Source: Gordius sp. MW1 (Eukaryota; Nematomorpha; Gordioida; Gordea; Gordiidae). From it: a stretch of DNA of 64,000 nt. Position 1 is the first letter of the stretch. Each line of letters starts with the position of its first letter. The position numbers and the translations under genes are program-made. Below are positions 55,100-57,922 of this stretch, one piece after another. The stretch lies in the NCBI GenBank assembly GCA_964036665.1, contig OZ038527.1, positions 1,178,001 to 1,242,000 of the forward strand. Reading direction: 5' to 3'. The notes below the pieces were generated by a model. That model did no database searches, was not told the origin of the DNA, and saw only the letters and a program-made list of their open reading frames with translations.

Positions 55100-56524
55100 T
55101 ATAAAGTTAGTTTCCAATAATGGTAGTTTAGGATTGATAAAATGCGAGGGTGGAAATGGGTTTAGATATTTCGGTCGTCCAGCGACCATTATCAATAAAA
55201 AAAAAAAAAAAGAGAAAAAAAAAAGAGAGAAAAAAAGGTAACATACAAGTGATGTGAATTACCAATGAACGAGAAGGTGTCGACAAGTTTTAATTTATAA
55301 ACAAAAATAATGAAATCTAGTTGAAATAGGAGGGTGAATAATAGCGAACACCGGTTGGAACAAGAGAGTTAACACTTATGAAATAGTGGGATAAACAAAT
55401 TTAAGATAAAGATGGGGTAAACAACTTTAAGATAAAGGATAAGGTAAAATACAAAAGGGGATTATAAAAATGAAGCAATAGCAACTATAAGAATAGTGTA
55501 AAGGATGGCAATTACAAAATAAGGCGGTTACGAAACAATAGGGGAAAGACAAAAGGGTAATAGGGTGTGTATAGTGATAACAGGTAGTTATAGAGGAAGG
55601 TGTGGGTGTATGTGTTTGTAATTTCTGAATTGTCCTGGTTGATCATTGATTTGGGGCTTGAGGCGGTCGATTAGAACGCTTTCGATGAATTTTCTTTCTT
55701 TGTTATACTGAGATCGGTAGAGGACAGTCGGGTTGTCCCAGTCGATGGTATGTTGGTTTTGTAGAGAGTGTTCTGCTACGGCGGAGTGGGTCGCGCATCG
55801 TGTCAGCGGGGCTTTGTGTTCTTTAATTCTTTCAGCTAAGGTTCTCTTTGTTTCTCCCACGTAAAATTGGTTGCAATCGGCGCAGGAGATTTTATATATT
55901 AAATTAGAGATATAATTTTTATCGGTTATGTTATTAATAGGTTTTATGAGTGCAAATAGGTTGGATGATGTTTTCTGAGAAAACTTAAAATTATCTATAT
56001 TATGTTTGTGAAAAATTTTATTTAATTCCTTGAGGAAATTATTATTAAGACTTCGGTGGAAAGGTATGGATATATAATGGTTTATTTTAGATTTTATTAT
56101 TGTGGGGGGATTCGCTCCTGATATTAATTTATTTTTAATGTTTGTCAGCAGGTCGAGTGGGTAGTTGAGGTCTAAAAATCTTTGTGTTATCTTGTCAACT
56201 TCAACAATCCTATCACACTCTCGAGAGCAATGAGATATTGCTCTTTCATCATTCTAAATGTGTTTATTTTAAATGAAGAGGGGGAATGGCTGTGCCATGG
56301 TATATACTGATAGGAATCAGTAGGTTTATGGTAAACTGTTGTGATGATCTCTTTATTTAAATTATGGAGGGTTAAATCTAGAAATGGTAACTGATTATTT
56401 GATTCTATTTCAACTGTAAAAATAATGTTTTTATGGAATGAATTTAATGTTTTTAAAAAATCATCTAAGTCATTAGTTAGGTTATGAGGCCAAATACATA
56501 AAATGTCATCAACATATCTGGCAA
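55100..56524 (-). pseudogene. Penelope-like element pair A, left copy (minus)
   Basis: The minus strand begins with the RT catalytic box RYVDDILCIW (56,524-56,488). It continues through the RT C-terminal part (FLDLTLHN, YHKPTDSYQY) and the GIY-YIG endonuclease (CADCNQFYVGE, then RIKEHK), and ends in a 3' region with a hammerhead-like core. Relative to the right copy it lacks a few bases near 56,245, which shifts the frame inside the RT-derived part. The 5' portion of RT is absent. It forms a near-perfect palindrome with the right copy, arms 55,100-56,494 and 56,525-57,920. Confidence 0.92.
55165..55195 (-). ncRNA. Hammerhead-like remnant, left copy of pair A
   Basis: The minus strand reads TTGATAA, a 5-bp stem GGTCG-CTGGA-CGACC, GAAA and TATC. 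It is identical to the right copy, with CUGANGA altered at two positions. Confidence 0.35.
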
Positions 56525-57435
56525 TTTGGCCTCATAACCTAACTAATGACTTAGATGATTTTTTAAAAACATTAAATTCATTCCATAAAAACATTATTTT
56601 TACAGTTGAAATAGAATCAAATAATCAGTTACCATTTCTAGATTTAACCCTCCATAATTTAAATAAAGAGATCATCACAACAGTTTACCATAAACCTACT
56701 GATTCCTATCAGTATATACCATGGCACAGCCATTCCCCCTCTTCATTTAAAATAAACACATTTAGAATGATGATTAAAAGAGCAATATCTCATTGCTCTC
56801 GAGAGTGTGATAGGATTGTTGAAGTTGACAAGATAACACAAAGATTTTTAGACCTCAACTACCCACTCGACCTGCTGACAAACATTAAAAATAAATTAAT
56901 ATCAGGAGCGAATCCCCCCACAATAATAAAATCTAAAATAAACCATTATATATCCATACCTTTCCACCGAAGTCTTAATAATAATTTCCTCAAGGAATTA
57001 AATAAAATTTTTCACAAACATAATATAGATAATTTTAAGTTTTCTCAGAAAACATCATCCAACCTATTTGCACTCATAAAACCTATTAATAACATAACCG
57101 ATAAAAATTATATCTCTAATTTAATATATAAAATCTCCTGCGCCGATTGCAACCAATTTTACGTGGGAGAAACAAAGAGAACCTTAGCTGAAAGAATTAA
57201 AGAACACAAAGCCCCGCTGACACGATGCGCGACCCACTCCGCCGTAGCAGAACACTCTCTACAAAACCAACATACCATCGACTGGGACAACCCGACTGTC
57301 CTCTACCGATCTCAGTATAACAAAGAAAGAAAATTCATCGAAAGCGTTCTAATCGACCGCCTCAAGCCCCGAATCAATGATCAACCAGGACAATTCAGAA
57401 ATTACAAACACATACACCCACACCTTCCTCTATAA
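56503..57435 (+). CDS. Penelope-like element pair A, right copy: RT C-terminus plus GIY-YIG endonuclease (5'-truncated)
   Basis: The open frame of 310 codons begins in the 30-bp palindrome spacer. From residue 9 it matches the left copy's product. Residues about 40-75 contain LPFLDLTLHN and the YHKPTDSYQYIPWHSH box typical of Penelope RT. The GIY-YIG nuclease spans about 205-300: YKISCADCNQFYVGET, an R-x-x-E-R-I-K-EHK helix with the catalytic Arg, and ESVLIDRLKP with the Glu. The upstream two-thirds of RT, including the YVDD box, is missing, so the start codon is fortuitous. Full-length Penelope proteins have RT and the nuclease in one chain that nicks the target and primes cDNA synthesis. 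Only the nuclease half could fold here. Confidence 0.9.
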   Translation: MSSTYLAIWPHNLTNDLDDFLKTLNSFHKNIIFTVEIESNNQLPFLDLTLHNLNKEIITTVYHKPTDSYQYIPWHSHSPSSFKINTFRMMIKRAISHCSRECDRIVEVDKITQRFLDLNYPLDLLTNIKNKLISGANPPTIIKSKINHYISIPFHRSLNNNFLKELNKIFHKHNIDNFKFSQKTSSNLFALIKPINNITDKNYISNLIYKISCADCNQFYVGETKRTLAERIKEHKAPLTRCATHSAVAEHSLQNQHTIDWDNPTVLYRSQYNKERKFIESVLIDRLKPRINDQPGQFRNYKHIHPHLPL

Positions 57436-57922
57436 CTACCTGTTATCACTATACACACCCTATTACCCTTTTGTCTTTCCCCTATTGTTTCGTAACCGCC
57501 TTATTTTGTAATTGCCATCCTTTACACTATTCTTATAGTTGCTATTGCTTCATTTTTATAATCCCCTTTTGTATTTTACCTTATCCTTTATCTTAAAGTT
57601 GTTTACCCCATCTTTATCTTAAATTTGTTTATCCCACTATTTCATAAGTGTTAACTCTCTTGTTCCAACCGGTGTTCGCTATTATTCACCCTCCTATTTC
57701 AACTAGATTTCATTATTTTTGTTTATAAATTAAAACTTGTCGACACCTTCTCGTTCATTGGTAATTCACATCACTTGTATGTTACCTTTTTTTTCTCTCT
57801 TTTTTTTTTCTCTTTTTTTTTTTTTTTATTGATAATGGTCGCTGGACGACCGAAATATCTAAACCCATTTCCACCCTCGCATTTTATCAATCCTAAACTA
57901 CCATTATTGGAAACTAACTTTA
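57436..57922 (+). repeat. Penelope pair A, right 3' region
   Basis: Noncoding tail matching 55,100-55,587 inverted. It ends 'ttggaaactaactttataaa', the outer boundary of the palindrome. A CT/T-run lies at 57,790-57,828, just before the hammerhead-like segment. Confidence 0.88.
57829..57859 (+). ncRNA. Hammerhead-like remnant, right copy of pair A
   Basis: TTGATAA is followed by a perfect 5-bp stem (GGTCG/CGACC), GAAA, and TATC. The arrangement is that of a minimal type I hammerhead with a dimer-forming AUAU stem III and C at the cleavage position. Two core bases differ (C3 to U and G8 to A), and the stem I strand upstream is replaced by a T-run, so it is probably dead. Confidence 0.42.

What the first reader, a model, noticed from the sequence alone, without database searches (positions are those of the whole stretch)
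55100..57922. Near-perfect 2.8-kb palindrome of two head-to-head Penelope elements
Two 5'-truncated Penelope copies face each other with arms of about 1.4 kb and a 30-bp spacer. Only the minus copy keeps the YVDD box; the plus copy starts about 10 codons later. The arms differ by very little (one visible small deletion near 56,245), so formation was recent or the arms have been kept alike. Penelope elements are known for inverted and tandem partial copies, but such a long, fresh hairpin can also arise from template switching during target-primed synthesis.
Basis: partly seen in the sequence, partly recalled or inferred. Interest (0 to 1): 0.72.

Follow-up and report, generated by a model that had tools for sequence, protein, structure and literature searches.

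The report
Retroelement pair inserted from both sides
The long mirror-image repeat is one insertion of a Penelope retroelement copied inward from both cut ends of the host DNA, and comparing many such insertions shows that one copy almost always starts about 29 bases further out than the other, a clue to how these poorly understood elements jump.

Summary
The palindrome is real: arms 55,098-56,523 (minus) and 56,524-57,926 (plus) differ by one substitution, a 4-base deletion and one T, with a 28-nt left-only centre. It is one insertion, not two: a 12-bp target duplication encloses the pair, and only the left arm has a 28-nt extension, the known Penelope "tail". This is the usual paired form here. 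Of 60 pairs from two sister families, 58 have exactly one tail and 55 a target duplication of at least 10 bp (swapped flanks: 20 of 1,868); both exceptions have two tails and no such duplication. Tail spacing has a median of 29 nt in both families. Best explanation: both 3' ends of a staggered cut prime reverse transcription, each at a different one of two adjacent start sites, perhaps on one RNA; the cDNAs join head to head. This fits published biochemistry (PMC11167929) and speaks against self-priming (PMC3846280). The object is a new member of a known kind; the one-tail rule is what I did not find in print.

The parts
55058..55069 (.). left copy of the 12-bp target-site duplication (AACATAGTAAAT)
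55070..55097 (-). 28-nt tail: 3' extension beyond the proximal end, present on this arm only
55098..56523 (-). left arm: 5'-truncated Penelope-like element, positions 1984-3415 of a natural reference copy
55588..56253 (-). ORF remnant with GIY-YIG endonuclease end; its frame breaks at the 4-nt deletion of this arm (inference from position)
56496..56523 (-). 28-nt centre carried by the left arm only (codes the YVDD part of the RT)
56524..57926 (+). right arm: 5'-truncated element, reference positions 2012-3415, no tail
56488..57435 (+). stop-to-stop reading frame with GIY-YIG endonuclease end (its first 36 bases lie in the left arm)
57927..57938 (.). right copy of the 12-bp target-site duplication

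Best explanation
One insertion of a Penelope-like retroelement by two-sided target-primed reverse transcription. The element's endonuclease makes a staggered cut of about 12 nt that leaves two 3' ends (inferred from the direction of the duplication and of the arms). Each 3' end primes an antisense cDNA on element RNA. One cDNA starts at a distal site (leaving the tail), the other about 29 nt further in at a proximal site. Both run towards the RNA 5' end, stop, and are joined head to head, with or without microhomology; fill-in gives the target duplication. Shown by sequence: one duplication round the whole pair, 3' ends outward, exactly one tail in nearly every pair, junctions that differ from pair to pair. 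Inferred: that the two starts belong to two protomers of one complex, and that both cDNAs were copied from one RNA molecule.
For: Head-to-head is the only inverted arrangement seen close together: of 77 clusters of the 126 listed protein matches, 19 are (-,+), none (+,-) at a spacing of up to 8 kb, 58 on one strand only (the list is a lower bound). Exactly one tail in 58 of 60 pairs; TSD of 10 bp or more in 55 of 60 against 20 of 1,868 swapped flanks; the two two-tail pairs are among the five without such a TSD. Spacing median 29 nt in both families although their tail sequences differ. A third family has one pair with one tail (L041). Of 20 ends picked because no exact partner was listed, 12 had a partner with a readable outer end, 12 of 12 tailless. 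Arms share variants found at no other sampled locus at 1.41 per kb (18 F1 pairs) and 1.87 per kb (13 F2 pairs), against 0.022 and 0.079 across loci; arm 5' ends lie within 30 nt in 15 of 43 pairs against a shuffled mean of 2.61. Published: a purified anole Penelope protein cuts and extends both target strands, starts at two adjacent internal RNA sites whose interval is the tail, and is predicted to dimerise (PMC11167929).
Against: PMC11167929 saw no difference of start site between top and bottom strands in vitro. Two pairs have two tails (L076, L077) and one outside the 60 has none (L019: ends at reference 457 and 423, 34 nt apart, with an 11-bp TSD), so the proximal site is not absolute; two partner arms (L101, L106) end 34 and 77 nt short of it. 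Four of 20 ends showed no partner, and L018 and L021 have none and no TSD. The shared variants are uneven: 9 of 20 in F1 come from L024 and 9 of 17 in F2 from L043; 11 of 18 F1 pairs (the window pair too) and 6 of 13 F2 pairs have none. They could also come from gene conversion between arms. No reads, RNA or biochemistry of this element.
Confidence: 0.82

Rival explanations
1. Self-priming: the pair is a hairpin cDNA made by self-priming on an antisense transcript (the hypothesis of PMC3846280), or a fold-back of the first cDNA copied back towards its start.
For: Palindromes with short centres are common: 15 of 43 pairs have 5' ends within 30 nt. The 2013 paper prefers this reading for head-to-head structures.
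Against: Copying one arm from the other should give the same outer end on both arms; 58 of 60 pairs differ by the tail. Fold-back copying would run into host DNA; among 61 pairs compared an outward inverted match of 15 nt or more is seen in two, L076 (41 nt, past the tail into host DNA) and L077 (23 nt, the shared tail only). Joins with no loop at the same element position exist (L046, L081).
Confidence: 0.07
2. Two independent insertions of Penelope elements that happened to land head to head, or a later inversion or duplication.
For: Ends of the two families are numerous: 255 and 303 end-motif matches with up to 3 mismatches. L076 looks like a later inverted duplication that includes host DNA.
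Against: One TSD of 10 bp or more encloses the pair in 55 of 60, and no (+,-) neighbours are listed within 8 kb.
Confidence: 0.03
3. A variant within the best explanation: two-sided priming from two separate RNA molecules of the same source locus, the tail rule reflecting fixed roles of the two protein subunits and not one shared RNA.
For: Explains one tail per pair and shared private variants without one RNA being copied twice. Seventeen of 31 pairs tested show no shared private variant.
Against: Does not predict the coincidence of the arms' 5' ends within a pair (8 of 43 within 5 nt, shuffled mean 0.57).
Confidence: 0.3
4. Assembly artefact: a read that doubled back on itself was assembled as a palindrome.
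For: No reads could be examined.
Against: The mirror stops at the element ends; the left flank has no second match and the right flank none in its first 498 bases (that search skips simple repeats); the arms carry different private changes; many independent pairs share the anatomy.
Confidence: 0.02

Closest known systems
EN-containing Penelope-like elements of the bdelloid rotifer Adineta vaga (PMC3846280; passages seen)
   Same: head-to-head as the most frequent inverted arrangement, target duplications of 8-10 bp in the cases described (some without), partial tandems, pLTRs, a 31-bp tail optional on one of the inverted pLTRs
   Different: here inverted arms reach 1.4 kb and more, arrays of several units also sit inside one target duplication, and tail presence is a near-strict one-per-pair rule counted in 60 pairs; that paper prefers self-priming
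Poseidon of Anolis carolinensis (PAc; PMC11167929; abstract, main text and the first methods seen, parts 1-2 of 4)
   Same: single ORF ending in GIY-YIG endonuclease, AT-rich target, internal start of reverse transcription inside the ORF start, tail equals the interval between two start sites, hammerhead motif at the start codon, tandem units
   Different: that work is in vitro and, in the parts seen, does not tie the two starts to the two strands of one insertion; here this is read from genomic insertions
L1 twin priming (recalled, not looked up)
   Same: two primers on one integration give an inverted join
   Different: in L1 one arm is internal and the poly(A) end is single; here both arms keep their 3' end outward

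Membership tests
Penelope-like element, Penelope/Poseidon type with GIY-YIG endonuclease | C-terminal GIY-YIG domain | tested here: met
   PF01541 above cut-off in both window arms and in a full-length relative in the same genome
Penelope-like element, Penelope/Poseidon type with GIY-YIG endonuclease | telomerase-like reverse transcriptase with YVDD | tested here: inconclusive
   YVDD is read in the left arm; weak matches of the relative's middle part to solved reverse transcriptases (best E 0.00068); no Pfam RT match even at E 10; placement near telomerase not tested
Penelope-like element, Penelope/Poseidon type with GIY-YIG endonuclease | pseudo-LTRs from tandem or partial-tandem units | tested here: met
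   units of about 2,958 nt in tandem at C8 and C5; the window copy itself is a truncated pair without tandem units
Penelope-like element, Penelope/Poseidon type with GIY-YIG endonuclease | optional tail of 30-40 nt at the 3' end | tested here: met
   here 19-39 nt, median 29
Penelope-like element, Penelope/Poseidon type with GIY-YIG endonuclease | hammerhead motif at the ORF start | tested here: inconclusive
   read by eye: sister family has CTGAAGA-stem-GAAA at the start codon; the window's family has TTGATAA (changed C3 and G8). No Rfam hammerhead match (for F1; for L034, L041, L044, L047). Core numbering recalled and from PMC11167929
Two-sided target-primed insertion | both 3' ends of one break used as primers, single target duplication | tested here: inconclusive
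   TSD round the whole pair and 3' ends outward are met; use of both 3' ends as primers is inferred, not observed

The most novel reading that the evidence does not exclude
Each Penelope insertion is made by one RNA molecule copied twice: two reverse transcriptase subunits sit at two adjacent start sites about 29 nt apart on the same RNA, each primed by a different strand of one staggered cut, so that element DNA grows inward from both sides and the inverted pair is the normal first product, not an accident.
Probability: 0.45. Interest if true: 0.78.

Novelty: new member of a known kind. Interest (0 to 1): 0.6.

Why it matters
How Penelope-like elements, the third class of eukaryotic retroelements, make their inverted structures was left open in 2013 (self-priming proposed, PMC3846280) and in 2024 (later steps yet to be validated, PMC11167929). 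A near-strict rule that can be counted in any good assembly, one tail per insertion with one target duplication round the pair, ties the two start sites seen in vitro to the two sides of one break and makes the mechanism directly testable with an existing purified system. It also warns that such pairs should be annotated as one insertion.

Tried and rejected
Arm differences as a test of one versus two RNAs: most are private to one arm, so only shared private variants were informative. Tail arm as the longer arm: suggested by the first pairs, rejected with more (13 longer, 15 shorter, 14 within 30 nt, of 42). Unit order in the C5 and C8 arrays as a record of one long RNA: outside the polypyrimidine tract only a few single-unit changes exist, so it says nothing. 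Rfam microRNA matches at the palindrome centre: below gathering scores and due to the hairpin itself. Empty site: the left flank has one match, itself; the right flank's other 39 listed matches cover only its last 176 bases, so no paralogous empty site. First tail detectors misread some rows: one search called L069 tailless and L056 two-tailed, with a looser match, called L055, L063 and L069 two-tailed; reading the flanks and a stricter match gave. One search used slightly wrong coordinates for the window junction; one search uses those.

Rows dropped before the count of 60: of 64 pair loci entered, L051 and L091 (an end motif not found), L067 (element continues past its left end), L063 (same insertion and flanks as L055, inverted). 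L041, L044 (one tail each) and L019 (no tail) were read by eye and are outside the 60. L015 has no left outer end; L018 and L021 have no partner. The shared-variant test used 31 pairs (18 F1, 13 F2).

Papers: PMC3846280 passages; PMC11167929 abstract, main text and part of the methods, not its supplements; others only as search listings. That I did not find the one-tail rule in print rests in an open-access library; older Drosophila virilis papers were not looked up, and a 2021 survey was not held.

Full report
Observation. The inverted repeat is present as described. The arms are 55,098-56,523 (minus) and 56,524-57,926 (plus). Aligned, they differ by one A/G substitution, a 4-nt deletion in the left arm and one T in a T-run. 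Mapped to a natural full-length relative in the same genome, the left arm covers positions 1984-3415 and the right 2012-3415, joined without overlap, so the centre is 28 nt found only in the left arm. Both arms end in a GIY-YIG endonuclease.

What it is. The window lies in a 211.8-Mb genome held without a name; its size and contents point to a eukaryote. The arm matches 49 places there (only 40 of 395 candidates were scored, so a lower bound). In the protein search, the 126 listed matches form 77 clusters, of which 19 are minus-then-plus (head to head, 3' ends outward), none plus-then-minus, and 58 on one strand; one (+,-) pair lies 13 kb apart. The two largest loci are arrays of units of about 2,958 nt that also face each other: 5 full units plus about 200 nt against about 457 nt plus 3 units at C8, and 4.66 against 2.64 units at C5.

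One event. The window pair is flanked by AACATAGTAAAT at 55,058-55,069 and 57,927-57,938, outside the whole palindrome. The left arm continues 28 nt past the point where the right arm stops, into sequence that in tandem copies follows the unit boundary: this is the tail described for Penelope elements (PMC3846280, PMC11167929). The C8 and C5 arrays have the same boundary anatomy, each with one 12-bp duplication round the array and one tailed outer end. Whether their units were laid down at insertion or multiplied later is not settled.

The rule. I took pair loci from the window's family (F1) and a sister family (F2, about 79% identical in the protein part). Some came, the rest from the rows shown (at most 100 exact matches each of 255, 147, 303 and 264), and I fetched both ends. 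Of 64 loci entered, 4 were dropped (see Tried and rejected), leaving 60. Exactly one outer end has the tail in 58 of 60 (38 of 38 F1, 20 of 22 F2; binomial against one half, p = 3e-15). A direct repeat of 10 bp or more at the boundaries is found in 55 of 60, against 20 of 1,868 when left and right flanks of different loci of the same family are combined. The 55 all have one tail; the two two-tail pairs are among the five without the repeat. One of these two, L076, is mirrored for 41 nt, past the tail into host DNA, and looks like a later inverted duplication. The spacing between the distal and the proximal end has a median of 29 nt in each family (range 21-39 in F1, 19-34 in F2). Outside this count, L041 (a third family) and L044 have one tail, and L019 has none: its arms end 34 nt apart, with an 11-bp repeat.

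Ends without an exact partner. Of 20 such ends (18 with tail), 12 had an inverted partner with a readable outer end, 12 of 12 tailless; in 3 the partner ran off the fetched stretch, 1 was doubtful, 4 had none. Some of these partners stop short of the usual proximal point (L101 by 34 nt, L106 by 77 nt), so that site is a preference. L018 and L021 have neither partner nor TSD.

Same template. In 18 F1 pairs the two arms share variants seen at no other sampled locus at 1.41 per kb, against 0.022 per kb between arms of different loci; in 13 F2 pairs 1.87 against 0.079. The signal is uneven: L024 gives 9 of the 20 F1 sites and L043 9 of the 17 F2 sites, and 17 of the 31 pairs, the window pair among them, have none. 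For the window pair that is expected, because its source family is nearly uniform: its arms are as close to units of the C5 array as to each other. The 5' ends of the arms lie within 30 nt of each other in 15 of 43 pairs (shuffled mean 2.61; 0 of 20,000 shuffles reach it) and within 5 nt in 8 (shuffled mean 0.57). Stops differ from locus to locus, so a common pause site does not explain this; a shared RNA 5' end does. This favours one RNA for both arms, but conversion between arms after insertion could also share variants.

Age and homogenisation. Arms of older pairs differ by 1-2%, as much as or more than each differs from the nearest other locus; L024 is an exception, its arms being closer to each other. 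So there is no general sign that arms are kept alike. The window pair is young (1 substitution in 1,350 compared sites outside the pyrimidine tract).

Mechanism. The duplication and the outward 3' ends imply that the top strand of the left flank and the bottom strand of the right flank each primed an antisense cDNA (inference from standard target-primed logic). Frangieh and colleagues showed in vitro that an anole Penelope protein cuts and extends both strands, starts at two adjacent internal sites, and that the interval is the tail; they saw no strand difference and left the later steps open. The genomic rule adds that one insertion uses one site on each side. The 2013 proposal of self-priming on an antisense template would, as I read it, give like ends on both arms, and is not supported.

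Membership. GIY-YIG, tandem units (at relatives) and tail: met. Reverse transcriptase: YVDD and weak matches to solved enzymes, no Pfam match. Hammerhead motif: seen by eye at the start codon in F2 and, changed at two core positions, in F1; no Rfam match.

Limits. One genome, no reads, no RNA, no bench data. The window pair alone would be ordinary; the value lies in the counted rule.

Noticed in passing
G000:C8:28,241,000-28,283,000 (L027, L029, L028): The host sequence after the right end of the array (after 28,267,041) recurs about 12.2 kb further on (after 28,279,264), beyond about two more units: a tandem duplication or an assembly duplication.
   Followed up: partly
60 pairs: The tail is on the left (minus) arm in 41 and on the right arm in 17 pairs (p = 0.002, uncorrected), although left and right should be arbitrary. 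Genome-wide tail-motif counts, which include tandem boundaries, lean the same way more weakly (83 vs 64, 142 vs 122). Unexplained, perhaps chance.
   Followed up: partly
L047 (G000:C3:23,338,900-23,342,900): Head-to-head array of about 620-nt units without the full ORF, one tail and a 14-bp target duplication: a likely non-autonomous derivative moved by the same machinery.
   Followed up: partly
L055 (C5) and L063 (C7): A tiny pair (71 bp between the outer bases of its end motifs) at two loci with the same flanks in inverse orientation: probably one insertion carried along by a duplicated host sequence.
   Followed up: partly
L025:4061-4100 (reference 350-390); L034; L041: Hammerhead-like core at the start codon; in F1 the C3-G8 positions read T and A, which would still pair; activity unknown.
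   Followed up: partly
window 6331-7152, 30309-31259, 59680-60255: Other retroelement remnants: an ORF with RNase H and integrase zinc-binding domains, and two reverse transcriptase fragments.
   Followed up: no
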